From Cyathus striatus (taxonomy: Eukaryota > Basidiomycota > Agaricomycetes > Agaricales > Nidulariaceae): 64,000 bases of DNA. The first letter of the stretch is position 1. Each line of letters opens with the position of its first letter. The stretch lies in the NCBI GenBank assembly GCA_025738555.1, contig JAOVFP010000011.1, positions 1,984,001-2,048,000 of the forward strand, written 5' to 3'. The position numbers were made by a program, and so were the translations under genes. A model generated the notes under the pieces. It was not told the origin of the DNA, did not search any database, and saw only the letters and a program-made list of their open reading frames with translations. Below, piece by piece: positions 594-32,218 of the stretch.

Positions 594-1055
594 ATCACCA
601 TTTATAATAGGCCTACAGTAGTAATATACACTTCAAACTAACCAATGATTGCATATGATCACCATTTATAATAGGTCTACAATAGTAATATACACTTCAA
701 ATTAACTAATGATTGCATATGATCACCATTTATAACAACCTACAATAGTAATATACACTTCAAATTAACCAATGATTGCATATGATCACCATTTATAATA
801 GGTCTATAGTAGTAATATACACTTCAAGTTAACCAATGATTGCATATGATCACCATTTTTAATAGCCTACAATAGTAATATACACTTCAAATTAACCAAT
901 GATTGCATATGATCACTATTTATAATAGGTCTATAGTAGTAATATACACTTCAAGTTAACCAATGATTGCATATGATCACCATTTATAATAGGTCTACAA
1001 TAGTAATATACACTTCAAACTAACCAATGATTGCATATGATCACCATTTATAATT
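594..1055. repeat. 64-bp tandem repeat, about 7 units
   Basis: Units begin ATCACCATTTATAATAGG and recur at 594, 658, 722, 785, 849, 911, 975 and 1039 (spacing 62-64 bp). Each contains TGCATATGATCACC. The array abuts the minisatellite at 1-593. This reproduces the order seen in the fold-back element at 17493-20808 (minisatellite inside, GATCA-bearing unit array outside), so it may be the outer arm of another copy. Confidence 0.9.
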
Positions 1056-1155
1056 GTAATAGGCATATAGTAGTTACATTAGAAACAGGCAATCATGAGA
1101 TAGATGATTGCCGCAATCATAAAACACTACACTTTTATGATCATTCTGGCTAATA

Positions 1156-2250
1156 CCACTCTCGTGTTCCTGAACTTATGAGGATAGAGTCACTATAACA
1201 TCTCATCAAACCAATAAATTAGACACCCTCTGATAAACCATCAGTATTTGAACTACTGACTGATTACACTATTTGTGCACAGGGCTGTTAGAATCTTAGA
1301 TATGGCTCTTTGCAACATTTTTGGCAAGTTATATCCTTCACTGACAAGTATAAAAGAAAAAGAAAACCTTAGCTGGAAAATACACTGATGGTGATTTGAA
1401 CCCCTAATTGATGCACTAGACTATTGAGGTGTCATACCCACTTCACTGATGGCACCATTAATTTCACTTATAACCAAGCATAGTTAACTAGTGAGAGGAA
1501 GTTATAATATTTCTTAAAGCTGACCTGACATAAGTTGACTGGAATAGTAGATAGTGGAATGTTCAAAGCACTACAACTTGGCTTCACAGTGTAAATTATC
1601 ATGGGAATGAAAGAAGAAACTTTTGATTGAAAGGGAATAAGCCTGTAGGGATTTGAGCCCCTACTTGATTTGTGCAGGAGGCTATCAAAGTGTGGTATCT
1701 GCTCTACCAACAGTGTTGATGATTTGTGTATAATAAAGTATAGATATCTAGTGAAAAGAAGTTACAATTTCACTTGATAAAGAAGATTGAAGACATTATA
1801 CTTTGAATGGCATAGTAGAGAGTGGAACATTCAACCCACTACGGCTTGCTTTGCAGTGTACACTGAGGAAGGCAAGCATGATCATATTAACCTCTACTCT
1901 TTTGCAGTGTTAGTACTTGCATGCATAATGGTGGAGTTGTACACATATGCCTTTTCACTCTTGGTTTAGCCTGATACATAATGGAATAGTAGAAAATGGA
2001 ACATTTGAACTACTACTGCTTGCTTCTTGGTGTAGCTGCACATTATTGTGGGCACAAAAATATAAAGCTTTTTTATGGAAAGCTGGACAACCATGCTCAA
2101 CTACATCAAAGTTTTTGAGCTCTGCCCTTCGGCTCTATGGCAGCACTCATATTTCATCTTCTCAAGGTTTAGTCATCAGTAGACTTCTCTCAAAAGTCCA
2201 GTATATTTTTTTTGCCTTTTCAAGCATTGTTGTACAATAAAGAGTATCAC
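1156..2250. repeat. Dispersed module with decayed tRNA-like units
   Basis: Closely related to 41520-42570: both start near a shared GAACTTATG(A/G)GGATAGAG block and carry the same succession of blocks. Inside, at about 1389-1452 and 1640-1716 (minus strand), are tRNA-like units with a B-box-like GGTTCAAATCACC or GGGGCTCAAATCC. Compared with the 41.5-kb copy, this one has replaced many CG by TG or CA. No gene is supported. Confidence 0.7.
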
Positions 2251-9208: not shown

Positions 9209-12200
9209 TTACTCCCAATCATTCTCCCAAGCTGGATTTATATCTTCCTGTGAGACATCTGGCAACTTCGACACCATAATGAGGTCTTTGTTGTCAACAT
9301 AGCCTAATTTACTCCATGCTCCCAGACATAGCAATGCCCTAGTAGAACGTGCAGAGAGTCGGTTATGAACATGCGAAAGCAATAGGCGTCCCTGGCTGAA
9401 TACACGCTCTACAGAAACAGATGTTGCTATAAATAAACATGGAAAGTAGTGAGAAATTTACTGGAAAAATGTGTGAATGAACTGACCAGGAATAAGTAGA
9501 TAATCACGAGCCATTAGCCAGAGACGAGGGTATGTATTCTTGTGTTCAATCCACCAAGCTAAAGCATCCTTAGTCTTAACCACTTTTTCATTGAGATAGC
9601 GGTCAAGTTCAGCAAGCAATGCCTCATTTTCGACTGTATCACCATCACAGCCATCACTATCCTCATCGGAAGAGTCAAATATATTTTTCTAGTAAAGTTT
9701 AATTATGTGAACGATCAATATACAAGTGAAATTTAATAAAACACTTGCCATCGAAAACTTTGATGAACTCGAATCTTGCTTATGCAGTTGTTGCTTACCT
9801 TTGTAGGTAGGGCGATAATAAGCATAATTGCATAAGAACTCGTTCTCTACTATTTTCTTTGCAGCCTGAATCCAATCTTCAGGCCATTCAGCCTTCTTGA
9901 AGTAAGACAGCTTTCGCCTAGGGTGTAGAACTACAATAAACCAGTGAGGATTAGTATACAGCTTCAATTATTATGTATAATAAACACACCTATTGCAATT
10001 CTGTACACATCAGATGTATCGCTCAATGAGTAATACTTATTGAGAAGCTTTTTACCAAGGGCAAAAGCGGCTTGCAAAGCAGGGGAATACTGGTCATCAA
10101 TAGCACAGCTTGCAAGATGATCATCTATGCGATCCATAGCAGGAATGACTGATGGAAGGGAAGGGTTATCACGAGAGAAAAACAGTGTTGCATCTTTAAA
10201 CAACTTGTTCCAATAATAAGTCTTGATTAAACATAAGAAGTTATAGACTTACTTTCAGTGTTTCACCCAAATGTGAAACTATACTCCACTCTTCAGCAGT
10301 CAATTCATAGTCTCTCAACTTCATGTCCCGATCTGCAGTGAGCTGATTAATAGCTGCGCGATACTTGTAAGAAAATGCAGCTAGATCATATGTAGAATTC
10401 CAGCGTGTAGCAACATCTCGTGGCATCATTCGCATGGTAAGCGCTTCATCAGAAGGTATTTTCTTGCCCTGCTTACTGATAATATCAGTTAAAATGGTGT
10501 TCCAACGAGGACGGACAATTGTAGGACTATTATTTATAGCCAAAGAAATTTTTCGTAGCTACAAAAATGTCAGTACATACAGTAATCAAAGTATAAAGAG
10601 AACACCAACCTTGAATAGGGCTTTGCATACAGGTTCTACCTTTGCCGATACAGCTTCCAGCTCATCTTCCATCGACTTCTCAAGATCTTCCATTCCAAGT
10701 TCTTCATCATCTTCCTGATCATCACCAACCTCTCCATCAGATTCATACTCTACCTCTTCATCCGATTTTGTAAGCTCAGTAGCAGCTGACTTTCCATTAT
10801 ATCGCCCATCAAACTGCCGAAGTATAATCATGACCACAAGGTTCAAGATATGTGCAAAGCAACAGGTACGATTAGCTTGACCCGGAAAAGCTACAATAAT
10901 ATTAGCAATTGCCTCAATCATTGCATCGTTTGCTGATGCATTATCACAGGTAATGCTGAGAATCTAAACGATAGTGGTAAGTTAACCTGCTATCTATTGT
11001 TCAACAATAAACAACACATACCTTTTCAGAAATACCAAATTCCTTGAGAATATCAGCGAATGCAGCTGCCAAATTAACCCCACTATGTGACTTTGCGACC
11101 TCAACAATATCAAGCAGGAGGGAGATAGGGTGACCATTGTGCTCTAAATGGACAGTGATAGCAATACAAGGATGATGGTTTGGCGATGTCCAACAATCAG
11201 TGCCAAAACTTAGTCGTCCATCATATTCCTGAGATGAAAAATGAACGTAAGTTTCAACTAATGTTATTGAATTCTATATGAATCTCACCTTAAGCATCTT
11301 CGAAATTCGCACTTTGGTACGCTTGAAAACCTCATGTACATCTCGTGCAACAGTGAACCGAGATGGGAGACGGTAGTGTGGGCGTCCAGTCTTCATAAGA
11401 AGCTTGAATCCTCGATCTTCTACTATGTTCAATGGACGCATACTTTCTGCAACCCATTTGACAATTTCAATTCTAAACATATGGTTGAGCATGTTTAGAG
11501 AAACACTATAGAATGTAGGGCGTACCTTGTTTCATTATATGTGAAGGCCCGGTTTGAATAGGTTATAGGGCCTCCCTTTCCTCCCTCAAGTTGCCGAGCA
11601 AACACTGCTTCAATACGTCCATCAATCCCTCTCTTATGGTTCTGCAATCCCTTTCGGATTGTAGCAATATTCACCCCTTCTGTACCATAGGCCTGCTCGA
11701 GTATGCTCTCTCCCCAACATTTGCGAGTATGTTTACGAAGATTACTTGTTGAGGTTTGATCACCTGTGTTGAAGAAGCGGCGCTGTGTTGGATTCTTGCA
11801 GCCATGGTTACTACAGGTGAAGACAACACATCGCTTCCCTTTGAAGAATTTGATCGAAGGCTTTGGCTCGTAGAATGCATAGACAGGTGCTGACCAGCCC
11901 TTCATAAATTTTTCTATTGGGAATGTACGTATATGGTATCATTAGTAAGTGTTCAAATCGTCATTCAAGAGTCAAATAGTAGAACTGACCTAGTTCCGCT
12001 TCATTATCTGTCTCTGGTGTATCACTCAACACCGTATCCTCTCCATTATCCACATCTACTTCATCATCCGACTCGATTATGCGCTGAGTGTTACGAGGTG
12101 GTTGATTTCTGGGTGCACCACCTGCTTCAGGATCATTGATTTCTTCGATTGAAGGGGATCGGGAGTGTCGTGCTTCATTTTCAGGGGCTGGTTCCTTCTC

Positions 12201-12559: not shown

Positions 12560-13920
12560 TTGCGGTGAATATAGACCTTTAAGCAATGCATACACCACAC
12601 CAAAACTATAATGACTGGCTACCTAGTTCCAAGCTCTATCTACACCTACACCACCATCGCCTCCCCCCATTACACCTCAACACATTGCAGTCAGTTCGAG
12701 TTTGTTTCACTTGTAAACTTGGGTACTTATAACTCATTCATATATGTCCACAACGCTCCAATAATCACCATGATCGGACCATTAATTCTGGCACCATAAG
12801 CAATATAGCAGCTTCTCCTTTTTCAACCTACCTCCTCGCACACTTTGACTCTGTGTGGTCGTTTCACCCCCTCACATCTCATGAACTAGGTTAGTTATTG
12901 TCGTTCGTGATACGTTCATGATAAGCTAACAACCACCACATTCAGGCCACGCGTTCTTGCACTATAAGTAATATACCTACCTGGTCCTACATCACTCCCT
13001 CACAGCCACCTTCTGAACACAATTCGACTTTTCATAGTCATTTTGAGCCCTTTCACCTCGAAATCCTGGGTACGTATTACCCATCCAGATACTGTCGCAC
13101 TGCAAAAACAACCTTGACGATCGGACTCTTCGTTGCTTCGCAATTGGCATTATCACCAGCATCTCCTTCTCCAACCAACCTCTTTGCGCACTTTGGCTCT
13201 GTGTGGTCATTTCATGCCCTCGCATCTCATATACTAGGTTAGTTATTGTCGCTCGTGATACGTTTACGATAAGCTAACAACCACCACATTCAGGCCACGC
13301 GTTCTTGCACTATAAGTAATATACCTACCTGGTCCTACATCACTCCCTCACAGCCACCTTCTGAACACAATTCGACTTTTCATAGTCATTTCGAGCCCTT
13401 TCACCTCGAAATTCTGGGTATGTATTACCCATCTAGATACGTTCGCGCTTCAAAAACACCCTTGACGATCGGACTCTTCGTTGCTTCGCAATTAGCATTA
13501 TCACCAACATCTCCTTTTCCTAGGCACCTCCTAGCACACTTCAACTTTGTGTAATCATTTCAAGCCCTCTTCTCTCGTAAATTATGTTAGTTATCATCGT
13601 TCATCATACGTTCGCGAAGCGCTAACGATCACTATAATCTGACGATGCATTCTGGTGTTATACGCAATATATCTAGATCTCTCCTTCACAGCCACCTCAG
13701 AACACATTTCGACTTTCCATAGTCATTTCAAATCCTCTCCCCTTGAAAATATGGGTACGTATTACTCACCCAGATATATTCGTGCTGCACAAACACCCAT
13801 CATGGTAAGACTCTTCGTTGTTATGCAATTAACCTTATCACCAGTATCTCCTTCTCCCAGGCACGTCCTAACACACTTTGACTTTGTGTTATCGTTTAAA
13901 GCCTATTGTACATATTATTA
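12560..13920. repeat. Tandem repeats of about 350 bp inside the hAT element
   Basis: The block CTAGGTTAGTTATTGTCG recurs at about 12886 and 13233, with a diverged copy (TATGTTAGTTATCATCG) at about 13584 and a partial one before 12880. Each unit also carries CCACGCGTTCTTGCACTATA, CACAATTCGACTTTTCATAG and GACGATCGGACTCTTCGTTG. It lies between the transposase start and the right terminus, where promoter and transposase-binding repeats are expected. No ORF of interest. Confidence 0.85.
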
Positions 13921-14142: not shown

Positions 14143-16215
14143 TGGTGCTTGGCATCCCACTGTCCATGTTGTGTCAGTACGACAGCAACTATTGTGTCCT
14201 GCCACTGCTATACTAACTACATCCCGCTGTCTCTACTCGATAGCCCCCTCTCCCCTCCTCCCTCCCCCCCTCCCCTCTCATCTCCCTTTCCTTCTCTCTC
14301 CTACCCTTCAACCAAACTAACCCCCAACCCAGACATTCATCCTAACAGACAGCACAACCCACTACCACACTGAAGACTGTAGCAAAACATGGCGTGAATT
14401 CACAGTCTCCGCTCCCCCCGCCCTCGTAAGCAAACCCCTCTCCTTCCACTCCAACCCCAAGAACTACGGGTGGATAATATATCAAGGCACATTATGCGAA
14501 TGGAGAGGATGGAGTAGTGTATGCCATGATGAGGTCTGTCTTTCTTCCTTTCTTTCTAGAGTAGGGGGGCTGATGAGAGGGTGTAGACATATTACATCAA
14601 AGACACATTCTCCAGCCACGCCAAGAGCCTCTTATCAGAAACTTCAAGCTGTCAATTCGCCCATTCAAGCAAAGATTTCAAACCCTCCACACCCCAAGAA
14701 CTCATCTACTGTGTCGCATTCGATACATCATCAACAGGGAGCACACACTCCATCTCATCATCCATCCTCTACTCATCTACCGACTTCTTCAAAACCAAAC
14801 CCCCAAAAGTCGAAGACTTGGGCATAGGAACAAGGAATGCATGGGGCATAATCGCATTTTCAATCGTATCCAAATTCACCGTTGCAGTGCTCAAAGATCT
14901 CACTTGGGAAGGGCGCGGGGAGACGTTGCTCTATGTCACTGTTGACGGGGTTACATGGGCCCGTGCACATTTCCCTCACGTGAGTAACGTGCAACTTAAA
15001 GAGAATTCATATACCCTTGTAGAATCTACCATGCATTCATTGGGCGTTGACATGGTCTTGCATGAAAAAGCAACCATTGGCACCATTTTTGTGTCGAATT
15101 CCAACGGGATGTATTTTGTTGAGAGTTTGAAGGATACGAATAGGAATGATATGGGGTTTGTTGATTATGAGCAGGTGTATGGGGTTGAAGGGGTTGGAAC
15201 AGCCAATGTGGTTGATAATGCTGTTGAAGTTGAGAGTCGGGGGGCTAGGAAGAGGTTGAGGACAGTGATTATGTATGATGATGGGTCGTCTTGGGATTCT
15301 CTTGTGGGGCCTTCTGAGGATATTTCTGGAGCTAAGATTTGTGGGTTGATGGAGGAGTGTGCTTTGCATTTGCATAGTGTTACGGCGCCACATAATTTTG
15401 GGAGGATATTTTCAAATCCAACTCCAACGGAATGTACTTTGGCGTCTCCCTTGACTACGTGAACTGGAACAACTATGGGTTCATGGACTTTGAGCAGATG
15501 ATTGGGCTTGATGGAATAGCACTTGTTAATGTTGTGGGTAATCCGGATGATGCTGCTATTACTGGCCATAAGAGGTTGCAGAGCAGGATCACGAATAATG
15601 ATGGTGAGTTTCGGGTATGCATTGGGCTAGGGTTTGTGCCGATGTGATTTAGGTTCGAAGTGGAGGCCTCTTATTCCGCCTAGGAAGGATTTGCTGGGCC
15701 AGGAGTATGATTGCAAGACTACTGTGAGTTTCTGTGCGATGTACATAGTATGATGGCTAATGTGATATTGGTAGAAATGCGCACTTCATGTTCATGGGTA
15801 CACTGAGTGTTCTGATCCTAGGGCTACATACAGCACTCCATCCATCATTGGACTGCTCATGGCCATGGGCAATGTCGGCGAGTACCTCACTCCCTACACT
15901 GACAGTGACGCTTTCCTCAGCTGAGATGGAGGCCACACCTGGCAAGAAGTACACAAGGATCCTCACCTCTGGAAGTTCGGCAACTCTGGGTTGATCCTGA
16001 TCATGGCGAATGATGAGGGCCCAATGGACCATGTGATGTTTAGCATTGACGAGGGTAATTCGTGGTGTGAGTACAAGTTCACTGAGGACAAGATGTGGGT
16101 TCAGTCAATTGTTACTGTTCCTTCGGATACGATCTGCAAGTTTATCTTGTTTGGGTTCCTGGCTAGGGGCAATGGGGATGTTGCTAAGGGTGCATTTTTG
16201 ATTTGTGTTTGTTGC
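14143..16215 (+). pseudogene. Vps10 copy 1, main body, decayed and internally fused
   Basis: Continues homology to copy 2 (61218 onward) immediately after the hAT element. The exon equivalent to copy 2 exon 3 (about 14317-14532) and the long first VPS10 propeller part (about 14590-15405) are recognisable, for example [16 protein letters not shown] and [17 protein letters not shown]. At about 15410, after NFGRIFS, the sequence jumps into the second propeller domain ([20 protein letters not shown], then [19 protein letters not shown]), so some 500 codons present in normal Vps10 are missing. A nonsense codon TGA at about 15921 replaces an expected CGA arginine in SDAFLS-DGGHTW. Differences from copy 2 are largely CG to TG/CA. 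The product would be a nonfunctional sorting receptor. Confidence 0.85.
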
Positions 16216-16749: not shown

Positions 16750-17600
16750 TGTAGGGAACCCTACTGGCCTATGTACAAAAAACACCTAATATACATAGTC
16801 CATTAGTTCCTGTACTCACCAATTATAAATTACTCTATTTACCATACCCTGATCTCGGGACATTAACAATGTTCCACACCCTCCATTATCCCCAAGATCA
16901 CTACAAATTCCAATGAAGTCCGCAAATATTACTAATCAATCAATTATTATTCAGCAAGCGCTAAAGTTAATGTGCTAAGCTATACCCTAAAAACTGACAC
17001 ACCAAAGTAAACACCGTACTGAAAGGCACGTGACTTAGCGATGGCCAATCAAAACGCACAGCAAAGTGCTTGCATCAATATTACTTCATCCAATGCTGCC
17101 GCGCGCCTCTTATACATATTCCCCTCCTCTTTTCCTTATTCCTTCACCTTTATCTTAATTCCCTTTCTACAAATCACCATTACTTAGTATATTATTAATC
17201 ATGGTACATCCTTCTACCTAGGTAGTTCTAAAAAGTATATAAACCCCTCTCATGTAGCTACATCCCTAAGTAAAATTCCAGTTTGATTCACACTCAGTAC
17301 TCATCTGTTGTTCACACTAAGCTTCTAGCTGTAGAGACTTAGTGTACTTCTGTTCTTATCCAGTTAATACTCATTACTGCTCAAGTTTCACTACCAGTTA
17401 AAGCTCTTGCACAGGCAAGAACCTTAGCTAACTTCGCATTTTCTACCCATAATCCACTAAACTTGCCTTCACTACTCCTCTTAAAACCATGAGTGTCAGC
17501 CAATTTGATCATTGGTGATCACAGAAAGCCATGGCTTTTTATGATCACCTACTATTATATATTTACTAATGAATCTATGAGGTACTAGTGGATGTATATG

Positions 17601-17945
17601 TGATCATAGGTGATCATTAAGCATTTCAAGGGTGTATTGGCTTATTATTATTACTAGTGAATGTATAGATGATCATAGGTGATCATTAAGCATTTCAAGG
17701 GTGTATTGGCTTACTATTATAACTAGTGAATGTATAGGTGATCATAGGTGATCATTAAACATTTCAAGGGTATATTGGCCTATTATCAGTACTAATGAAT
17801 ATATAGGTGATCATAGGTGATCATTAGGTGTTTCAAGGGTATATTAGCTTATTATTAGTACCAATAAATGTATAGGTGATCATAGGTGATCATGCAGCAT
17901 TTTCAAGGGTGTACTAGCATAATATTGGCACTAATGAATGTAACT
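17601..17945. repeat. 69-bp repeat array, left arm
   Basis: Five units at exact 69-bp spacing, each with two GATCA boxes (GTGATCATAGGTGATCAT) followed by TTTCAAGGGT(G/A)TATT. The mirror array lies at about 20290-20700. Confidence 0.92.
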
Positions 17946-18600
17946 CTTCCTACATGTCACATCTGTCACACATATTCACGCGTTCCACAAATTTCCCACG
18001 CTTCACGTTTGTCACTTAAACTCGCACGCGTCACAGTTGTCACATACATTCACACGCGTCACAGTTGTCACATACATTCACACGCGTCACAGTTGTCACA
18101 CATATTCGCACGCGTCACAGTCGTCACACATATTCGCACCCATTACAATTGTCACACATATTCACATGCATCACAGTTGTCACATGTATTCCCGCGCTTC
18201 ACAGCTGTCACATATATTTGCACATGTCACAGTCATCATACATATTACCATGTGTCACATTTGTTACAATGTCACATACATCACACATGTGATACATATT
18301 CCTGCACATCACATTTGTCACGCTTTCCATGTATGTCACACATGTCACACAAATTCCCCATACATCACATTTATAAACCTGTGCATAATATATGTCACAC
18401 ATTTTACACACATCATATTCGTTACATATATTCCTGCACTTTACATTTGTCACAAAATCCATGTGGGTCACATCTATTTCTGCAAATGACATATGTCATG
18501 CTTTTCATGTATGTCACACTATTCACACATATTCTCAGACATGTTACATCTGTTACAAATTTCATGTATGTCATATTTGTCAATTGTTTCTTTACATTTT
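17946..18600. repeat. 28-bp minisatellite, left arm
   Basis: Near-perfect 28-bp units ACGCGTCACAGTTGTCACAT followed by ACATTCAC, most regular at 18025-18180 and degrading inward. Translations (HTRHSCHTYSHASQLS-like, period 28 residues) are repeat artefacts. There are no unique spacers, so it is not a CRISPR. Confidence 0.92.
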
Positions 18601-19529
18601 ATAGCCAAGGAATCAGAGCACTCTGTGACATTACAATTAACTACTGGTCCATTGTGTAGTAATGAAATTTGACCTTTGTCATCAATAATTTATTTAATTT
18701 TGAAAATTATGTTAAGAGCAGGAAACCCAGCAATAACAGGTGCATGAACCACTTCCTGATGTTGTCTTGTTAAATTGGATGGGGGGATTCTGAAATGTCT
18801 GTTGACTGCCAATCCTATATGGTGTCTGATCCTAGAAAAGTGAAAAGTAATAGCTACTGTGCAAGAAAGAATAGAGAAGTACAGGAGGCATTTTCATACT
18901 TAAGAATAGATACAAATACTAAAAGAACTATATAACATATTACACTCAAATAGTGAAATTAAATGTGACACAATATCACTAAGAGTGGAGATAGTGTCCA
19001 TTAATTCTTTGTATCAATAAAACAAAGAAACTGTTTTGTAGTGATATAGAGTAAGCAACTATGTGACTCAATAATGTGGATTGTTGAAGATATCAGTATA
19101 ACCAGTGGTTGATGCAAGAATCATGATAATAACTGAGATGCATAAGTTTGATGTGATGTGGAATCACATATTTCACCATTCTTTCACATATTTTATCCAT
19201 GAGTGGCTCTATCACTGTCCTTTTCAATAGCAAAATGTTCAATACCATCACACCTCTAGTTCTGATTGTAAAACATGTCATACCATTTCATTCCAAATTT
19301 ATCATACATTGTTAATGAACCTATGAATCTACATACACTCTATATTTTCCATTCTAGCTTCTTATTACTCTTACACTTCCTTAATTTTCTAATTATAATA
19401 TCACAAGGTATGACCTTCAATTCTATAAGAGCATATATGTTTCTTTGTTTTAATAATTTATTGTGCACTTTGGATACTTTGCTTCTGTAACAATTTGAAT
19501 AATAGTATACAGGTAACTATACTGCATGT

Positions 19530-20290
19530 TGCACATGACATATGTAAAAAGTGTCACATGACTACCACATGTGACAAATGTGACATGCTTAAAAAGCGTA
19601 ACAAAAGTCACACATGTGAATATATGTGACAAATATAGTGTGTAAAATGCGTGACATTTGTTATAAACAGGATTATAAATGTAATGCATGTGAAATTGTG
19701 ACATGTGTGACGTACATGGACAGCGTGACATATGTTGTGCACAGGATTATAAATGTGATGCATTGGAATTTGTATGACATGTGTGATGTATGTGACATCG
19801 TGACAAATGTGACACATGGTAATATATGTGACGATTGTGACACATGTGAATATGTGTGACAACTGTGGTGTGTGTGAATATGTGTGACAACTGTGAAGCG
19901 CGGGAATATGTGTGACAACTGTGACATGTGTAAATATGTGACAACTGTGGCACATGTAAATATGTGTGACAACTGTGATGTGTGTGAATATGTGTGACAA
20001 CTGTGACGCGTGCGAATATGTGTGACAATTGTGACGCATGTAAATATGTGTGACAATTGTGACACATGTGAATATGTGTGACGACTGTGACGCGTGCGAA
20101 TATGTGTGACAATTGTGACGCGTGTGAATATGTGTGACAATTGTGACGCGTGTAAATATGTGTGACAACTGTGACGCGTGTGAATGTATGTGACAACTGT
20201 GACGCGTGCGAGTTTAAGTGACAAACGTGAAGCGTGGGAAATTTGTGGAACGCGTGAATATGTGTGACAGATGTGACATGTAGGAAGAGT
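19530..20290. repeat. 28-bp minisatellite, right arm (inverted)
   Basis: Reverse complement of the left-arm array (GACGCGTGTGAATATGTGTG, then ACAACTGT). Units are homogeneous nearest the outer boundary and degenerate toward the centre, mirroring the left arm. Confidence 0.92.
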
Positions 20291-20700
20291 TACATTCATT
20301 AGTGCCAATATTATGCTAGTACACCCTTGAAAATGCTGCATGATCACCTATGATCACCTATACATTTATTGGTACTAATAATAAGCTAATATACCCTTGA
20401 AACACCTAATGATCACCTATGATCACCTATATATTCATTAGTACTGATAATAGGCCAATATACCCTTGAAATGTTTAATGATCACCTATGATCACCTATA
20501 CATTCACTAGTAATAATAATAAGCCAATACACCTTTGAAATGCTTAATGATCACCTATGATCACCTATACATTCATTAGTAGTAATAATAGACCAATGTG
20601 CAGTTGAAAACACTTAATGATCACCTATGATCACCTATACATTCATTAGTACCAATAATATGCTAATACTCTTGAAACACTATATGATTACCTATGATCA
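20291..20700. repeat. 69-bp repeat array, right arm (inverted)
   Basis: Units with TGATCACCTATGATCACCTA and ATACATTCATTAGTA, the reverse complement of the left-arm 69-bp units; about five to six copies, slightly more diverged. Confidence 0.9.
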
Positions 20701-20973
20701 CCTATGATCACATATACATCCACTAGTACCTCATAGATTCATTAGTAAATATATAATAGTAGGTGATCATAGAAAGCCATGGCTTTTTATGATCAAATTG
20801 GCTGACACCCCTCTTAAAACTCTATACAAGTCTTAATAATTCTATAAGACTTGTACCCTAATTTAACACCTTACAACAAACTCGACAACTTGTTTAGAAC
20901 AACAGTGACAGATTGGACACTGTCACTCTCTGTACTTTATTGTACACCTTCAGACAAGTAGTCACCATACAAC

Positions 20974-20993: not shown

Positions 20994-21097
20994 CTTCTAA
21001 ATTCAGTTGTCTCCTCGCTTTCGACTCAACAACCAATTCAAAGATATTACAATCCAATTTCATCAAAAACATACAAGCAATCTGAAATACTTTCCCC

Positions 21098-22690
21098 ATG
21101 TCCCAACATAACATTGACCCATCACAAATTCAACTTCCCCGTTCACCCGTACATGACTTCGTTCCATATCCATTAGGTTACACACCTTCAAAATATCCAA
21201 ATAATGACCTGGCCCCACATGCAGCCACACGTACCACTTTACCTTCTCCACAACTGAGTTCTAAACCCCCCACTTTGCATCCTGCAGATTGGACAATGAA
21301 TTTGGCACTTTTAGAAGATCAACAAAGCATTAGAAACAGTAATGCATACCATCAGCGTGGAATGCCATCCCCAGGTGATAGAGGCGCACCTAAATTTAAT
21401 GGAAAGCCTTTGTCCCTGCAGCACTTCTTCAGAAACGTTGAGTGCCATGCAATTCTTTGTGAACTTGATGAAACTGAAGCCATAGAATGGACCTATTCTT
21501 ATGTATCCCAAGAAGAAGATACCTGGCATGAAAAAGTGGACAGTATAATCCACTGGGAAGAATTTAAAGAACTGATATCCGAATTATACCCCGGCACAGA
21601 TGGTGACAAGAAATACTTGATTGCTGACTTGGAAACACTAATAGCCCAGCAATCTACTAAGCCAATTTCTGGAAGATATCAGTTGGGCGAATATAACAGA
21701 AAATTCTACTGTATTTCCTCCTACCTGAAGCACTGAGACAAACTTACTGCTAGGGAAATCAGTATCTACTTCATGAACAGATTTACTCCTGAGTTCCGCA
21801 AAGAAATACAAGATCAGTTGCATATTCAGGAACCAAAACACGATCCCGAAGACCCATAGGACTATAAAGAAATCTATAAGGCAGCAATTATCCTCCCACC
21901 ACCAAACAATGGAGGACTTACCCTGGAAAACAATATGCGAAACCAAAGAAATCTGTTCCAGCCCAAAAAGACATACAATGCAACAGCTATGGAGAAACTG
22001 TATAATGATCAGCCCCCAGCCGAAACTTATACTAACAAATGGAAAAGTGGACCAAATACCTCATATACTGCACCATTGCCAGTAAATGATAGGCCTCTAC
22101 ATTGAACCTTCCAATGCTTTTTCTGCTCGGACACAAATCATATTATTTCCTTATGTCCAGTATTAAATGAATACGTACAAAAGGGACTGTGCAAGACAGG
22201 TGATAAAGGGCAAATTCTAATGCCAGACGGCTGCCTAGTCAATAACTCAGTAGCCCTGGGACCAGACCATAAGACGTGCATTGATAACTGGTATAAAGTC
22301 AACAAGCATCCAGAAGTAGCCTCAACCAATGTTATTGAAGCTACTCACATTCCCAGCTATAGCCAGAATGCCCCTACAGAAAGATCAGGTGCATTCATAG
22401 AAGAAGTAGTGGATCAGGAACCACCTGTAATGCAGGAAGAAATAGACCACCTTCCGGTACTTGAGACCCTCATGAATAACACAAAGCATGAACTGGAGTC
22501 CATCCAGAAGAAGATGAAGGAGAATGCCAATAACTGTAAACCAGATGGTTCAGTAACCTGTAGCAAAGCCAGAAACGACGTACAAGTTCCCAGTGCGACT
22601 CTGGTGGAAAATCAGAGCTACCAGAGTAATAGGGAACCACAATACAAGTACCAAGCACCAGTAGAGTCATTAGAACTCACCAAGTGAGTC
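21098..22690 (+). pseudogene. Gypsy gag (decayed)
   Basis: Capsid-type reading from about 21098 (KFNGKPLSLQHFFRNVE, then YPGTDGDKKYLIADLE) with stops at about 21735 and 21857. A zinc knuckle CFFCSDTNHIISLC (CX2CX4HX4C, about 22117-22160) follows, then a hydrophilic tail to about 22690. Gag would form the cytoplasmic particle that packages element RNA. Several in-frame stops make it nonfunctional. Confidence 0.85.
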
Positions 22691-22871
22691 ATCCATAAAG
22701 GGCTTGATAGTACTATCACACTAACATGTGAAGAACTATTTGCAATCGCCCCAAAATACAGACAACAGATGAAAGACCTTATTTCAAGCCGTAAAGTTAC
22801 TACATTTGGCTCAGAAAACAACTTGGCCACACAAAATGCATTAAATGTCACAGTTAAGTCTTACAGCAAAA

Positions 22872-25800
22872 GGTGCTTGACGATGGGAAAATTGTTGCCA
22901 ACTGCAAAGAGGACTTGCGACAAATTCCTGTCAAACTAAACAAATCCGTACCTGTCAACACAATAGTTGATAGTGGCTCACAAATTATCAGTGTATGAAA
23001 AGAAATCTGGGAAAAGTTAGGCCTTCCCCTGTGTTCAGACTATGTGATGGAGACCGAAGCTGCCAATGCTTCATGTGGATGCACCTTAGGAATGTTAACA
23101 AACCTTACTGTATCAATTGGGGACATGGACTTCTATGTCCAAGCCCAAGTAGTTCCCAAGGCATCCTATGATATGCTGCTAGGCCTCCCATTTTTAACAC
23201 TGACTCAGGGAAGCATCCACCATTTCACAATAGGAGACACACACCTTGTACTGCAAGATCCAAATACTCATGCAGTTATAATGGTACCAACCCAAGCGAG
23301 GCGCCGTAATCACTATATTGCCTCTCAGGATTTTTAGGTATCAATGATTTGGGAAATACCCAAGGAGATACCTCAACATGTTCAGTTCTTAACTGTGAAA
23401 CAAATAAAAGTGCTAATGACTCACTTATTCTCTTTTCTAATCCAAAACTCCAACAAAACTGCTTCATGACTTCACCTATTTGTTTCTCATCTACTACTTT
23501 CTCTCCACCCGCTAAAACCCTCGAGTCTTTTGAAATTTCTCTATATAATCTAGAGCACATCGCCTGCTCAAACGTATTATCAGAAGTCTTCACATACAAG
23601 AAAGTGGTGGACAGAATTAAACCTGTCACTACTACCTTACCAGAAAAATTTCATATAGTTCGACGCATTCCTTCTGATCCTTTGGCAGAAATGCCAAAGC
23701 TTTCTACCCATCCTCCAGACTTCGTCCCAGGAGAAAGATACACCCTTGAAAGAAAAGAAGAAAACAATGTAAATAAAGACAGCTTTCTTTGGCTAGAAGA
23801 AGAGAAACTGGTCCATGAACTAATAAGGCTTCAAGAATATGCCTTTGCCTGGAACAAAGAAGAAAAAGGGAAATTCTCAAGTGAATATTTCGACCCTGTA
23901 GTCATTCCTACAATAGAACATGTACCTTGGGTTCTCCATAATATTCCAATCCCACAGGGTATCTTTAATCAAGTTGTCCAGATTATCAAGGACAAAATAG
24001 CAGCAGGTGTCTATGAACCTTCAAGTGCATCCTATCAGTCCCACTGGTTCTGCGTACTAAAGAAAGATGGAAAATCCCTATGCTTAGTACATGATCTTCA
24101 ACCATTAAACGCAGTCACTATCAAAGACAGTGGAGTACTGCCAATTGTAGAAACTTATGCTGAATCATTTGGCGGACATGCATGCTACGGTGTTTTTGAC
24201 TTGTTTGTCGGCTTTGACCAATGTGAACTAGCAGTTGAATCAAAAGACTTAACCACCTTCCAGATGCCATTAGGAACATTCAGACTCATCTCTATTCCGA
24301 TGGGATACACAAACTCCATGCAAATACAGCATGGAGACTTAACATTTCTCCTACAAGATGAGACACCCCATGTTGCGGCACCCTTTGTCGACAATGTACC
24401 AGTTAAAGGACCTGTCACAAGGTATGAGAAAGAAGATGGATCATATGAAACCATACCTGAGAACCCAGGAATACGGCATTTCGTATGGGAACACCTCCAG
24501 AATGTTAACCATATAATACAACACATTAAGCATGCTGGAGGCACATTTTCAGCCAAGAAATCTCATTTCTGTGTGCCAGAAGCACTGATAGTTAGTCATA
24601 AGTGTACATATAATGGCCACTTACCAGATGATACACGCATCCAAAAGGTACTAGACTGGCCCACATGTCGAAACCTAACAGAAGTCCGTGGATTTCTAGG
24701 AACCTGGAACAGTACGTGTATTTGTCAAAGACTATGCTATTCACGCAAAACCACTCATTGCACTTACCAAGAAAAACAACGAGTTTTCCTTTGGGCCAGA
24801 AGAACAAAAAGCTATGGATACCCTGAAGCTATTAGTTAAAAACTGTCCAGCAATCCACACTATTGACTATCTCTGTGATAGAGAAGTTATTCTTGTGGTA
24901 GACTCGTCCTGGATAGGTGTTGGCTATGTTCTACTTCAGCTCAGCCTGGATAACAAGTGCTATCCATCATGCTATGAATTGATAACCTGGAACAAGCGCG
25001 AACAACACTATTCACAGGCTAAACTCGAATTATATGGCCTGTTTCGTGCATTAAAGGATGTCAGAATCTATATAATAGGAGTAAGGAACTTTACCATAGA
25101 AACTAACACCAAATATATCAAAGGCATGTTGAATAATCTGGATCTACAACCAAGTGCAACCATCAACAGATGGATTGCTGGGATATTGTTATTCTCACCA
25201 TTCAAACTTGTTCACATACCTGGTAAAGACCATGCTGTGGCAGATGGTCTATCACAAAGACCACAAGCTCCAGAAGATCCACCCAATGTAGAGGACTGGG
25301 AACAATGGATTGATGACACAAATGCCTTTGCAATCGAAGTCTTGAACTGGGAATGTACACCATGCTCCTCTGTCTATATGCAGACCGGCAAATGCATTAC
25401 AAGTCCAACATTGGCAGCACAGTTGTACATGTCATCTCATGATTGTGGGATTCGACCTTCTGAATTAGTACAGACGCTCCTGGGCACTTCTCTTGAAATA
25501 CCACATACTGACAAGGCAGAGAAGCGTGATCTCGAACTCTCCTGTGTCAAATCCTTTCTTGAGAACCCTGTCCGACCCTCCAACATGTCTGATACTCAAT
25601 ATACCAAGTTCATTCGACACTGTCTTCAGTTCTTCACAAAAGACGGCTGCCTTTGGAAGAAAGACCCTCATGGCAAACACAAGCTGGTCATTCCACCACC
25701 CAAGCGGCTTGGACTAATCATGGAAGCTCATGATGAGTTAGGACATAAAGGGATCTTTACAGTGCATATTTGACTTCTCGAGCGCTTTTGGTGGCCACAT

Positions 25801-26910
25801 TTGGAAGACGACATCAAGTGGTACATCAAGACCTGTCATGAATGTCAAGTCAGGCTTCTACACCATCTTCATATCCCACCCTCTGTCCCCACCCCATTCT
25901 CTCTCTTCTGAAAAGTCCATATTGATACTATGCTTATGCTGAAGTCCAATGGCTATAGATACATTGTACACACTCGCTGCTCTCTGTCTTCATACCTGGA
26001 ATGGCACATGTTATGCCATGAAAACACTTGCACACTTGCCACCTTTATCTTCGAAGAGATACTTTGCTGATGGGGTGCTATCGAAGAAATCGTTTCGGAC
26101 AATGCACCTCAATTTATCGAAGCCTGCCAATACTTAGTGGAAAAGTACCATATTCACCATATTTGCATCTCCCCTTACAACTTGCAAGCTAATGGCACAA
26201 TCGAATGTCGACACTTTGATGTATGCGAAGCTCTTATCAAAGCAGCAGATGGAAATGAAAACCATTGGACACAAGTTGCACCCTCCATTATCTGGGCAGA
26301 ACAAGTGAGTATCCAAAAATGTACTGGATACTCACCTTATTATATAGCACACAGTGTCGAACCTGTTATGCCATTCGATCTGGCTGAAGCCACCTACTTA
26401 GCTCCTAAACTCGATCATCTAGTGTCTACTCAAGAACTTATCACATACCAAGCCAAGCAACTTCAAAAGCAACTGGCTGACCTGGAGAAAATAAAAGAAC
26501 ACATACTTAAAGCTCATTACGAGTCAATCTGACAATTCGAGAAAGAAATGGCTCACAAGATCCATGACTATGACTTCAAGCCCAGATCCTTAGTTCTCAT
26601 TCAAAACTCATGATATGAGCATGATATCACATGGTTCAAAACTAGACCACATTATCTTGGACCAATGGTCATTCTTAAATGGACCACAGGCAGCTCATAT
26701 ATCTTAGCAGAACTTGATGGCTCAGTCTCTCGTCTTCGATTTGCCACATTCTGTCTAATACCATACCACCCATGCGATCCTACCAACATACCAGTTACAC
26801 AATTACCATCCATATCTGATGAAGAAGTAGCACATACTACTATTGCCGATGATGAAGACCCTCCTTCACTTCAAAACATCCTATCATTACCCACATATAT
26901 CTCATATTAA
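22872..26910 (+). pseudogene. Gypsy pol: protease, RT, RNase H, integrase (decayed)
   Basis: Protease: VDSGSQIISV (about 22966-22995, catalytic D-S-G) followed at once by a TGA stop (22996-22998), then the flap and C-terminal MLLGLPF block. RT: 23900-24700, with the LKKDGKSLCLVHDLQPLN block and the catalytic box changed to FVDN (24384-24395) where the family has (Y/F)xDD. A frameshift near 24710 moves the reading into RNase H (24814-25500; VDSSWIGVGYVL, and KLELYGLFRALKD). Integrase: zinc-finger part (HDELGHKGI, TCHECQ, about 25730-25850) broken by stops at 25771 and 25911; core and tail from about 25950 (GTIECRHFDVCEAL, GYSPYYIAHSVEP). The C-terminal linker ends about 26910. It cannot encode a working polyprotein. 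Confidence 0.9.
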
Positions 26911-28393: not shown

Positions 28394-28631
28394 TGTAGGG
28401 AACCCTACTGGCCTATGTACAAAAAACACCTAATATACATAGTCCATTAGTTCCTGTACTCACCAATTATAAATTACTCTATTTACCATACCCTGATCTT
28501 GGGACATTAACAATGTTCCACACTCTCAATTATCCCCAAGATCACTACAAATTCCAATGAAGTCTGCAAATATTACTAATCGATCAATTATTATTCAGCA
28601 AGCACTAAAGTTAACGTGCTAAGCTATACCC
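28394..28631 (+). repeat. Truncated 3' LTR (first 238 bp)
   Basis: Near-identical to 16750-16987 up to CTAAGCTATACC, then diverges. About 660 bp of the LTR are missing, either by deletion or because a fragment was left by recombination. Confidence 0.85.
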
Positions 28632-28996
28632 CACTCTCCTCATTATGCCTTTGTCTAATTCAAAGAACATTCACTGCCTCAAGTTCGCTCAGTCGATCAC
28701 TACATTTATAACCAAGCTTAGTGACACCATTCCACTTCTACCATCCCCAGTCAAGGGAATTGCATCGACAACAGCCAAGATTTTAGAGGTTTCTTTGGTA
28801 AGCTAGATATTGTGTGTAGACACAATTGTGAGGTCTAACCTATTGCTTTTAAGACAGTTCTAAGAAACAAAGATGATGTAATGGGGCTTGCAATGTTCTC
28901 AATGGACATCATGGAGATGGTCATCGATAGGGCTCAATGGGTTCCGATTCTGACTTCACAATTGCAAAAGGATATTGTGAGAGTCGTGGCTATCAA
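28632..28996 (+). pseudogene. Host gene fragment left of the second fold-back element
   Basis: Frames such as NKDDVMGLAMFSMDIMEMVI and TSQLQKDIVRVVAI (about 28866-28990) resemble the helical N-terminal domains placed before NTPase domains in many basidiomycete NLR-like proteins. The reading appears to continue after the inserted element at 32148-32218 with SLDRTRRHLNEYI, ending at a GTAAG donor. The identification rests on general pattern only. Frame breaks and the 3.15-kb insertion make it nonfunctional. Confidence 0.35.
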
Positions 28997-29079
28997 TTTG
29001 ATCAATCCCTGTCACTAACTAGTGGGGGCGTGCACTAGATGGTCAGTGAGAGGTCATTGATTGTGTTCTATGTCTGAGC

Positions 29080-29690
29080 ACAATCAATGGTTAGTTTGGA
29101 ATCAATGGTTAGTATGGAATCAATAGTTAGTATGGAATCAATAGTAAACTCGAAATCATTGTAATATAAATCAATTAAAAATGAAATCAATGGAGATCAG
29201 TCCGAAATCAATCAATCTGCGAAATCATTAAAATTAAAAATCAATAGGTAGAAATCATTTGTACCTGGAAAATCAATCAGTGTAAGGTGAAATCAATCAA
29301 TGTAGAGTGAAATCAATGCTATGGACTTAGTAGAATTACACTCTATAGGTGGAATCAATCAATTTAAAGTGAAATCAATGTGGAGAAATCATTTGTATCT
29401 GGAAAATCAATCAATGTAAGGTGAAATCAATAGGGTGAAATCAATGCTATGGACTTAGTAGAATTACACTCTATAGGTGGAATCAATCAATTTAAAGTGA
29501 AATAAATGGATAGAAATCATTTGTACCTGGAAAATCAATCAATGTAAGGTGAAATCAATCAATGTAGTGTGAAATCAATGCTATGAACTTAGTAGAATTA
29601 CATTCTATATGTGGAATCATTAAGAAATCAATGAGAATAGATGATAAAATCATTGTGAAATCAGTGCTATATATTTAGTGAGTGCATATG
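29080..29690. repeat. AATCAAT array, left arm
   Basis: Irregular 25-110 bp units. The longer unit, GCTATGGACTTAGTAGAATT followed by ACACTCTATAGGTGGAATCA, occurs at about 29320, 29448 and 29579. Confidence 0.85.
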
Positions 29691-29999
29691 CCAGTGATTA
29701 GTCATCATTCTTTTATTTTATCATTATTATATCTGCTCTATTACAATTACAAAGTACCTAAGTACTTGTATGTTACATGTTACAGTCAATTCATTGAAAG
29801 AAAATACCGTGGGAATTATTCTCATAATGTCTCAACAATGTCCGTTAACATTATCTAGATGTATGCAAGATGGATGAGAAAATTATAACACATTTTAAGC
29901 AAATGTTTGTTTATTTATCCAATAGACTTGAATATATATCATATTTATAAATGATCCTTTAGTTAACTGGAAAGTATATATGTAATTACTGCTTTCCCA

Positions 30000-30185
30000 T
30001 TGATTCCACATGCATAACAGCATTGATTTCACCCTACATTGATTGATTTTCCAGATACAAATGATTTCTCCCCATTGATTTCACTTTAAATTGATTGATT
30101 CCACCTATAGAGTGTAATTCTACTAAGTCCATGGCATTGATTTCACTCTACATTGATTGATTTCACCCTACATTGATTGATAAAA
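30000..30185. repeat. ATTGATT array, right arm, inner part
   Basis: Reverse-complement units (TTTCACTTTAAATTGATTGA, ACTCTACATTGATTGATTTC). The same array resumes at 31620, so the 1.4 kb between looks like an insertion in the arm. Confidence 0.8.
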
Positions 30186-30499
30186 AATAGGGCCATCTAG
30201 CGGCAAAACCCACTACCTACCAAATAAACAATAGGGCCAGGTAAGAGAATTGAGAATGTTTATTAATAATATAAATTTAAAATACAGTAATTGATGCAAT
30301 AGATAAAAACTTGTATATTTTGTGGATATGAAGTTCATAAGTCTGGAAAGAAGCAGGTTATGATAGGTGAGATTAAAATAAGGCAAATGGAAATACCCTG
30401 GACAATTTGGACTTATTAAGCCACATAGTTATTTAACATGGAAGAAAGATATTTAGTAGAAAAGGTTGATAAGTTGTCTTCATTAATATTTTAGAGATT

Positions 30500-31251
30500 T
30501 TAAATAAGTATTAGTACTGAATGTGAATTAGTGGTATTGAGTATATTTTGTAATACATTTATTTTTAACTCTGACTGGGAAAGTATTTGTTGCAAAGATG
30601 CATAACATTCAGCTTTAAATTGGACACACTGAAATATATCAGATGCTGAACAAAAACCATTGCAAAGGTAATTCATAATTTGGCATTGAAGTTCATCAAC
30701 ATGCCATGAATCATATAGAATATCAATCACACGAGCTGAAACAATTAGTTGCAATTCTTTCTTTTCAGAATAGGAATGCTATTTATAAATGACAAAACTG
30801 ATTCATATGAAATAGCAGGTACAGACATATAGCAGTTTTTGTAAAGAGTGAGACTACAGATGAGTTGGATCTTTGTTGCATATAAGTAGTTTCAATAAAA
30901 TAGCAATTCAAATGATAAGAAGACAAGAATTGGGCAGAATATGATTTACAAAGTTCAGGTGTGTTATTGGAAAAACATTTTCCTGAGAAGATATGTTTTA
31001 GAAACTTATTAATATCAGGATAATTGCTAGCACTAGTGCTAATTCCATGGAGATTCATAACATATTTCAAACATTGCATAGACATAAATATATGTGATAA
31101 ATCTTTTAGGTTTTCAATAATGAATTGAAGCTATGATGATAAATGAGCAACATACAGATTACTAAGAATAATATAACATACATGGCTCAATTCAGGTGTT
31201 GCAAGTGGAGGAAGGTTGGAAGAAGTTATAACAGACAGTGAAGAAGACATG
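30500..31251 (-). pseudogene. Unrecognised decayed gene inside the second fold-back element
   Basis: The minus-strand reading from a possible ATG at 31251 (MSSSLSVITSSNLPPLATPE) meets one stop at about 31135, continues in frame through HGISTSASNYPDINKFLKHI to 30783, then shifts frame to ARVIDILYDSWHVDELQCQI, ending at 30500. Together this gives about 250 codons, Cys- and Leu-rich, with no motif that I recognise. It might be the remains of the element's own protein or of a nested insertion. Confidence 0.35.
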
Positions 31252-31619
31252 AAAGGGCTGTAGGTTATGAAAGTTAGTCAAGTTAAATAGCAAAAGGAAT
31301 GCAACACATATTGTGAAATGAGGATTGATTTTAGCTCATCAGAGATGAGGAAGGAGTAAAGATAACACACAGTTCAAGATAGAAGCAAGGAAGATGGGAA
31401 ATAAATACAACACAAGATTATATAGTAGTAGGATTTTCAATTGATAACATTTGATTGAAATAGTGGTCTAATTCATAAGTGTACTAAATACATTTTGAAT
31501 AGTTTTGGTTTCAATAGTGGTAGGAGCCAATCAGGTTGAGATCCCAAAGTCAGATCTCAAAATTGCCTTTTCAGGATGTCAAGAGTCCCCTAAGACCCAC
31601 TTACCTTAAAAGGTAGTGG

Positions 31620-32090
31620 GAATTTCACCTTACACTGATTGATTTTCCAGGTAAAAATGATTTCTACCTATTGATTTCACTTTAAATTGATTGATTCCAC
31701 CTATAGAGTGTAATTCTACTAAGTCCATAGCATTGATTTCGCTCTACATTGATTGATTTCACCTTACATTGATTGATTTTCAAGGTACAAATGATTTCTA
31801 CCTATGTATCAAGTATATTTGTGCAGATTAACTAGAAAAGGTACTATAGTACAGTGGTTATTACTACATGGTTATCTACCCTACTTGTATGTTGAGCTGT
31901 AATGGGGGACCGAAGGATTTGAATTAATTTCTGCATTGATTTCGTTCTGATTGATTTCGGACTGATCTCCATTGATTTCATTTTTAATTGATTTATATTA
32001 CAATGATTTCGAGTTTACTATTGATTCCATACTAACCATTGATTCCAAACTAACCATTGATTGCGCTCAACCTAGAACGCAATCAATGAC
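31620..32090. repeat. ATTGATT array, right arm, outer part
   Basis: Units TTGATTGATTCCACCTATAG and CATTGATTTCG(C/T)TCTACATTG. Interrupted by about 110 bp of unrelated sequence at 31803-31915, then the terminal block mirrored at 29040-29200. Confidence 0.8.
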
Positions 32091-32218
32091 CTCTCACTGA
32101 CCATCTAGTGCGCGCCCCCACTAGTTAGTGACAGGGATTGATCAAAATGAAAGCCACTGGTGGATGATGAAGGAGGGCTCGTTGGATAGGACCAGGAGGC
32201 ATCTGAACGAGTATATTG

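What the first reader, a model, noticed from the sequence alone, without database searches (positions are those of the whole stretch)
17493..20808. Fold-back element whose arms are layered satellite arrays
The arms, about 1 kb each, are mirror images and consist almost wholly of two ordered tandem arrays: 69-bp units with paired GATCA boxes outside and a 28-bp CACA-rich minisatellite inside. The unit order is mirrored, and minisatellite homogeneity falls toward the centre in both arms. There is no transposase. Arrays of this kind could be multiplied binding sites for a trans-acting transposase, or a structure kept by hairpin-driven recombination. I know fold-back and MULE elements with long inverted repeats, but not this particular two-layer design.
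Basis: partly seen in the sequence, partly recalled or inferred. Interest (0 to 1): 0.8.

Follow-up and report, generated by a model that had tools for sequence, protein, structure and literature searches.

The report
Fold-back transposon with layered satellite arms
A stretch of non-coding DNA that can fold back on itself is a jumping gene without its own enzyme; its ends match those of large transposons that carry a KDZ transposase, and in a related family the arms are stacked layers of the end-repeats of different transposon families, as if such elements had changed helper more than once.

Summary
The fold-back is real and mobile. It spans 17488-20813 with a perfect 7-bp target duplication TTAAAAC. 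Its 19-bp terminal repeat (up to 3 mismatches) occurs 839 times in the 107-Mb genome against 7 for the reversed control. Of 37 selected end pairs, 27 have a 7-bp duplication at 6/7 or 7/7; shuffled pairs never exceed 1. All 27 carry one CATRA and one RAGDG outer pentamer.

The helper is not a MULE (0 matches). Five 18-20-kb elements with the same or closely related ends, duplicated 6/7 or 7/7, carry KDZ transposase genes; nine of their ten ends were read and hold about 10 to 32 tandem units.

All 8 arrays tested carry a TCAT doublet spaced 10 bp, the likely multiplied binding site. An inner TGTCAC layer and an ~840-bp core recur in many non-coding elements; neither was found in the nine KDZ-coding arms. 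In a related family the arm strata match, from outside in, arrays beside KDZ genes, arrays of other KDZ-coding elements, and the window's own 69-bp class: successive re-capping.

Verdict: new variant of a known kind. Binding and mobilisation are inferred.

The parts
17481..17487 (.). target site duplication, left copy, TTAAAAC
   Evidence: identical to 20814-20820; 22 of 37 end pairs have 7/7, shuffled partners at most 1
17488..17511 (+). left terminus: CATGA pentamer plus 19-bp terminal repeat GTGTCAGCCAATTTGATCA
17516..17547 (.). subterminal near-palindrome TGATCA...GCCATGGC...TGATCA
   Evidence: read; its partner is at 20764-20795
17582..17942 (+). left outer layer: 69-bp units, 5.2 copies, consensus with two TCAT boxes 10 bp apart
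17986..18600 (+). left inner layer: TGTCAC minisatellite, regular 28-bp units to 18268, decaying toward the centre (inner limit by eye)
18640..19480 (.). non-coding central core shared by elements with different ends
   Evidence: 45 genome matches, itself included, inside elements of several subfamilies; no Rfam match reaches its gathering score in 17400-20900
19520..20247 (-). right inner layer: TGTCAC minisatellite, 28-bp units 16.1 copies from 19800 (inner limit by eye)
20291..20705 (-). right outer layer: 69-bp units, 6.0 copies
20764..20795 (.). right subterminal near-palindrome
   Evidence: read
20790..20813 (-). right terminus: 19-bp terminal repeat plus pentamer (GAGGG read inward)
20814..20820 (.). 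target site duplication, right copy, TTAAAAC

Best explanation
It is a non-autonomous DNA transposon of the KDZ (Kyakuja-Dileera-Zisupton) kind, nearest to Kyakuja by its 7-bp target duplication. A transposase made by 18-20-kb KDZ elements recognises the shared 19-bp terminal repeat and, cooperatively, the TCAT-N6-TCAT doublets repeated in the outer arrays, pairs the two ends and moves the fold-back to a staggered 7-bp target cut. The outer array is the currently used cap; the TGTCAC layer and core are an older chassis on which caps of different KDZ subfamilies have been placed. Shown: mobility scars, shared ends, KDZ genes inside elements with such ends, related arrays in coding and non-coding elements, stacked arrays in one family. 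Inferred: that the doublets are bound by the transposase, that it acts in trans on this copy, and that the outermost layer is the one in use.
For: Ends: 839 places with up to 3 mismatches against 7 in the control. Duplications: 22 of 37 pairs 7/7 and 27 of 37 at 6/7 or better, shuffled maximum 1; two further pairs match 8/8 in an 8-bp register. KDZ-coding elements: C8 7/7, C3 7/7, C2 6/7 with this 19-mer at 0-2 mismatches, C7 7/7, C12 6/7 with it at 2-3 mismatches; in C8 separate frames hit CxC2 (131.7 bits) and KDZ (141 bits). KDZ loci followed within 6 kb by a closing end: 12 of 84, wrong-facing 2, random mean 0.84 and maximum 6 in 2000; hAT control 0 of 90. Outer arrays in 9 of 9 KDZ-coding arms scored. 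Unit consensus outside the doublet: non-coding 69B against KDZ 69B 46/49, non-coding 114 against KDZ 61 33/41. TCAT-TCAT spacing of 10 is the commonest in 8 of 8 arrays.
Against: No KDZ-coding element with the window's own 69A unit was found: 69A and KDZ 69B agree 19/20 in the doublet but only 34/49 outside it, and the end beside the C13 KDZ gene, which resembles some 69A fold-backs at its tip, carries 69B-type units. The doublet is clearly better conserved than the rest of the unit in one of four sets (1 of 69 circular shifts reach it), weaker in the window (5 of 69), not in KDZ 69B (16 of 69) or the 102-bp set (35 of 102). Eight of 37 pairs lack a convincing duplication in either register. 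72 of 84 KDZ loci had no closing end among the 277 places entered. Kyakuja as published has CA..TG termini and no TIRs (PMC12730594); here one end is RAGDG and there is a 19-bp TIR. No binding or transposition was measured.
Confidence: 0.82

Rival explanations
1. A MULE-type Foldback element as in Drosophila: MULE transposase acting on long tandem-repeat arms.
For: Overall shape: long inverted arms made of tandem repeats, no gene.
Against: No PF10551 match in the genome, control rings in 3 of 14 genomes; 7-bp duplication where MULEs make about 9 (recalled); KDZ genes sit inside elements with such ends.
Confidence: 0.02
2. The arms are kept by hairpin-driven recombination or gene conversion between the two arms, and the arrays have no binding role.
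For: Arms 92% complementary over 645 nt; within-element arms slightly more alike than between elements in 69-bp fold-backs, 0.884 (4 comparisons) against 0.872 (27 and 24); outer arms of P5 and P6 100% identical.
Against: In KDZ-coding elements same-end arrays of different elements are as alike as or more alike than the two arms of one element (0.904 against 0.871; 0.906 against 0.899; 2 to 4 comparisons each); the outer pentamers differ between the two ends in all 27 pairs with a duplication.
Confidence: 0.12
3. The 69-bp and 28-bp arrays are ordinary satellite expansions by replication slippage with no function; the ends alone suffice for transposition (compatible with a KDZ helper).
For: Copy number varies widely, some ends with perfect 19-mers have neither array (5 of 28), the inner layer decays inward with CpG loss.
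Against: Units of different sequence and length (57, 60-61, 64, 69, 102 bp) keep the same 10-bp spaced TCAT doublet; all 9 KDZ-coding arms have the arrays.
Confidence: 0.2
4. A hAT7 or P/Galileo-type transposase, which also make 7-bp duplications, moves the family.
For: 7-bp duplications are reported for hAT7 in rusts (PMC12730594, passage) and for Galileo (recalled); hAT matches are common here (151).
Against: 0 of 90 hAT loci have a closing end within 6 kb against 12 of 84 KDZ loci. A P-type transposase was not searched for.
Confidence: 0.04

Closest known systems
Kyakuja transposons of mushrooms (KDZ; Kojima 2025, PMC12730594; abstract, passages and sections 3.1.1 and 3.2.1 seen)
   Same: KDZ transposase, 7-bp target duplication, one end begins CA
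   Different: Published Kyakuja have CA..TG termini and no TIRs; here the other end is RAGDG, there is a 19-bp TIR, long array arms, and many non-coding members
KDZ1-KDZ3 of Cryptococcus (PMC12810828, passages seen)
   Same: Mobile KDZ elements with TIRs and a cysteine-cluster domain
   Different: 9.2-11 kb, TIRs of 139-241 bp, 8-bp (KDZ1) or 4-8-bp duplications, CxC1 rather than CxC2; satellite arms are not described in the passages seen
Galileo of Drosophila (P superfamily; PMC3688188, abstract seen)
   Same: Foldback-like long TIRs whose tandem repeats hold extra transposase-binding sites: the nearest tested mechanism
   Different: Other superfamily; binding there was measured, here it is inferred
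Tetris of Drosophila virilis (PMC4079207, abstract and passages seen)
   Same: Non-autonomous foldback, arms of outer domain plus tandem repeats, shares ends with another element
   Different: Helper unknown, three complete copies, one named repeat type; no layers matching different helpers in the passages seen
FB elements of D. melanogaster (recalled)
   Same: Arms of ordered tandem repeats, fold-back shape
   Different: MULE-related helper, about 9-bp duplication

Membership tests
KDZ superfamily, non-autonomous member | KDZ transposase in elements with the same or closely related ends and duplications | tested here: met
   C8, C2, C3 and C7, C12
KDZ superfamily, non-autonomous member | this copy itself codes for a KDZ transposase | tested here: not met
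   two of five long frames without Pfam hit; no KDZ place within it among the rows listed
Kyakuja | 7-bp target duplication | tested here: met
   22 of 37 pairs 7/7
Kyakuja | termini CA..TG | tested here: not met
   34 of 37 pairs have one CATRA and one RAGDG end; the two CATRA/CATRA pairs lack duplications
Kyakuja | no TIRs (as published) | tested here: not met
   19-bp TIR
Kyakuja | transposase branches with Kyakuja rather than Zisupton or Dileera | not tested
   no named reference sequences were at hand; CxC2 domain present
MULE / Foldback | MULE transposase | tested here: not met
   0 matches
MULE / Foldback | about 9-bp duplication (recalled) | tested here: not met
   7 bp
hAT7 | hAT transposase inside the ends | tested here: not met
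   0 of 90 hAT loci entered have a closing end within 6 kb
P/Galileo | P-type transposase inside the ends | not tested

The most novel reading that the evidence does not exclude
The arms are a stratigraphic record of helper switching. A gene-less chassis (core plus TGTCAC arms) has been re-capped in succession with the ends and doublet arrays of different KDZ families, so each older cap lies fossilised one layer further in. The doublet grammar, two TCAT boxes one helical turn apart in units of otherwise different sequence, is a common recognition code of these transposases, and the TGTCAC layer is the cap of a helper not yet seen.
Probability: 0.5. Interest if true: 0.78.

Novelty: new variant of a known kind. 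Interest (0 to 1): 0.64.

Why it matters
Most fold-backs are assigned to the Mutator superfamily (PMC4079207, passage), and helpers can be missing, as for Tetris. Here helper candidates are at hand in the same genome, beside at least three related end families, each with its own array sequence but one shared 10-bp doublet. That makes two open questions testable: whether subterminal arrays decide which transposase moves an element, and whether non-coding elements outlive their helpers by exchanging ends. If the strata are real, arm order gives the relative age of transposase families within one genome. The asymmetry of the outer pentamers in elements whose ends are otherwise inverted repeats is a further point that a mechanism must explain.

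Tried and rejected
MULE helper: rejected. hAT helper: rejected as the general helper. TET/JBP cargo: PF12851 gave no match but rang in no control either, so nothing follows. One-off inversion: rejected. C10:3230801-3264203 as one 33-kb element: rejected, the left end pairs with 3234519 with a 7/7 duplication. C5:825499-853482 as one element: no duplication and an odd right pentamer. Symmetric CATAA pairs P38 and P39: no duplication, probably ends of different elements. Relict terminal repeats at layer junctions: best 7-8 mismatches of 19, as in scrambled sequence. Two Rfam matches in the right arm are far below gathering scores and taken as repeat artefacts. The core has no frame above 69 codons. 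The 28986-32157 fold-back: related-looking ends but no duplication found by eye; left open.

Limits of the counts. The 37 pairs were chosen from the listed perfect places plus some one- or two-mismatch partners, not at random. The 28 ends are the first 30 perfect places in contig order less two that belong to KDZ-coding elements. The 12 arms of 69-bp fold-backs were picked; left out of that set were C6L, which matches the others over about 40 bp only, C17L, and L011, an arm without arrays that is among the 28. The conservation of the doublet between array classes is biased in its first eight bases by the anchor used for rotation. Counts said to be by reading come from comparing printed lists by eye.

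Full report
WHAT IS THERE. The window lies in contig C11 (1984001-2048000) of a 107-Mb genome of 24 contigs with no name. The abundance of KDZ genes, a NACHT/NPHP3_N gene and a retroelement RNase H suggests a basidiomycete-like fungus; this is inference. In detail: two mirrored arms, 69-bp arrays outside and 28-bp TGTCAC arrays inside, around a core. The true limits are 17488-20813, with TTAAAAC on both sides.

IT HAS MOVED. The 19-bp end GTGTCAGCCAATTTGATCA occurs 413 plus 426 times with up to 3 mismatches, against 4 plus 3 for the reversed pattern. For 37 selected pairs of facing ends I compared the flanks: 22 match 7 of 7 and 27 at least 6 of 7 directly outside the pentamers; with shuffled partners the maximum in 2000 trials is 1. 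Two more pairs (P5, P9) match 8 of 8 one base longer. The other eight (P2, P3, P6, P25, P27, P31, P38, P39) do not.

TWO KINDS OF END. The five bases outside the 19-mer are CATRA at one end and RAGDG at the other in 34 of 37 pairs, and in all 27 with a duplication. Genome-wide, 363 places fit CATRA plus the 19-mer and 461 fit RAGKG plus the 19-mer, both with up to 3 mismatches and 0 in the control. In a sister subfamily at least 20 facing pairs listed show GCCATTTTGATCA at one end and GCCATTCTGATCA at the other (by reading; a few, such as C1:1854406/1856681, are alike). So the ends keep separate identities although they are inverted repeats.

THE HELPER. The genome has 159 KDZ (PF18758) matches, exon pieces counted apart. 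Three elements of about 18-20 kb (C8:2527481-2546998, C2:4272055-4292479, C3:694360-712028) have these ends, duplications of 7/7, 6/7 and 7/7 and a KDZ match 2.8-3.4 kb from the CATGA end. In C8 separate frames hit CxC2 and KDZ, and one KDZ frame finds 217 relatives, five of the 120 listed being named KDZ transposase by their source. A second subfamily, C7 about 3656083-3675290 and C12 about 3170999-3189164, has CATAA and GAGGG ends with the 19-mer at 2-3 mismatches, duplications of 7/7 and 6/7 and a KDZ match inside. Over 84 KDZ loci, 12 have an inward-facing end within 6 kb downstream, 2 a wrong-facing one; random positions give 0.84 on average and 6 at most. The same test on 90 hAT loci gives 0 and 0. 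A third end family (GTGTCAGCCAAAATTATCA or its AAATTT relative) lies 2.9-4.6 kb behind five more KDZ loci, by reading: C1:7655391, C14:2149078, C7:4358842, C7:4985408, C21:449017. MULE: none.

ARRAYS. The KDZ-coding arms carry 69-bp units (9.9 to 25.3 copies in the stretches read) or 61-bp units (22.1 to 32.0 copies). Nine of nine such arms scored have the outer type only, no TGTCAC; the tenth end (CATGA end of C3) was fetched for 71 bases only. Four more ends beside KDZ genes, whose partner ends were not tested, carry 4.0 and 13.1 copies of 69-bp units (C13, C6) and 11.3 and 18.4 copies of 57-bp ACTCAT units (C14, C1); TGTCAC is absent in three and occurs twice in the C13 stretch. Of 12 picked arms of 69-bp fold-backs, 12 have both layers with the outer nearer the end. 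Of the first 30 perfect ends less two KDZ-coding ones, 16 of 28 have both layers (15 in that order; the exception is a 1.3-kb element whose opposite arm comes into view), 3 outer only, 4 inner only, 5 neither. The array classes hold TCAT boxes 10 bp apart: GGTGATCATAGGTGATCATT, GGTGATCATAGACAATCATT, GGTGATCATATGCAATCATT, GGTGATCATTGGCACTCATT, GAGCACTCATAAGTACTCATT. Ten is the commonest TCAT-TCAT distance in 8 of 8 arrays tested. Within arrays the boxes are clearly better conserved than the rest in one of four sets only.

STRATA. The 841-bp core has 45 genome matches, itself included, the others at 73-96%; by coordinates they lie inside elements with 69A and 69B ends and, as fragments, in 102- and 114-bp subfamilies. 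It has no match in the C8 element, which was fetched whole, nor in the fetched ends of the other KDZ-coding elements. A related group of fold-backs has arms with four layers. In C14:2813800-2819000 and C10:1597300-1602000 the strata score best, from outside in, against the 57-bp arrays beside KDZ genes (126 in both, next class 37), the 61-bp arrays of KDZ-coding elements (284 and 265, next class 85 and 59) and the 69-bp class (156 and 169 for the window's non-coding 69A, 92 and 102 for KDZ-coding 69B); shuffled layers reach 31 at most. TGTCAC and the core follow. At least nine core matches lie within 4 kb of ends of this family, by reading the lists. No relict terminal repeat remains at the junctions, so the joins would lie inside arrays.

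MECHANISM. Galileo gives the tested precedent: tandem repeats in long TIRs hold extra transposase-binding sites (PMC3688188, abstract). Here I infer that the KDZ protein binds the doublets, the arrays raise its local concentration and choose the partner transposase, and a 7-bp staggered insertion follows. Re-capping could arise when an old fold-back sits inside a KDZ element that then loses its interior, or by exchange within arrays; neither was tested. In the window element only one doublet class is present, so there the reading of TGTCAC as an older cap rests on analogy.

ON PRINT. Searches for Kyakuja with Dileera and Zisupton, with transpos, with nonautonomous/MITE/inverted repeat (1,176 papers, 8 listed), and with tandem repeat, for KDZ with foldback (0 papers), for KDZ transposons with basidiomycetes and terminal inverted repeats, for foldback with transposase binding, and for subterminal repeats showed no description of such stacked arms in the listings, abstracts and passages seen; subscription papers are mostly not held.

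Noticed in passing
window 1-1161: One arm of another two-layer element, cut by the window edge: end GAGTG+GTATTAGCCAGAATGATCA, 64-bp GATCA units (594-1054) outside, TGTCAC minisatellite of 71/125 bp (69-595) inside.
   Followed up: partly
window 28986-32157: Another fold-back with a long related-looking terminal repeat (GTGGCTATCAATTTGATCA, 4 mismatches) and AATCAATG-rich arrays; no duplication found by eye.
   Followed up: partly
window 9488-9610: A hAT dimerisation-domain match (C11:1993488-1993610, minus strand).
   Followed up: no
window 12809-13903: Tandem array of a 348-bp unit, 3.2 copies.
   Followed up: no
window 21086-26532: Gypsy-like retroelement pieces right of the fold-back; one of three frames tested hits RNase H domains, the rest by eye.
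   Followed up: partly
window 16750-16987 and 28394-28631: Direct repeat, 97% over 238 bp, 11.6 kb apart, bracketing the fold-back and the retroelement.
   Followed up: no
window 14587-15462 and 61657-62742: Two Vps10/sortilin-like frames in one window; the second hits PF15902 at 367 bits, the first resembles it by eye and was not tested.
   Followed up: partly
window 33073-35757: NACHT/NPHP3_N gene on the minus strand, in two frames.
   Followed up: partly
L070 1832-3195: Between two pieces of a KDZ match 1.4 kb apart lie mirrored 11-bp and 19-bp arrays, which looks like a nested fold-back.
   Followed up: no
genome, one search list: In the 114-bp subfamily one end often reads GCCATTTTGATCA and the other GCCATTCTGATCA: end-specific identity beyond the pentamer.
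   Followed up: partly
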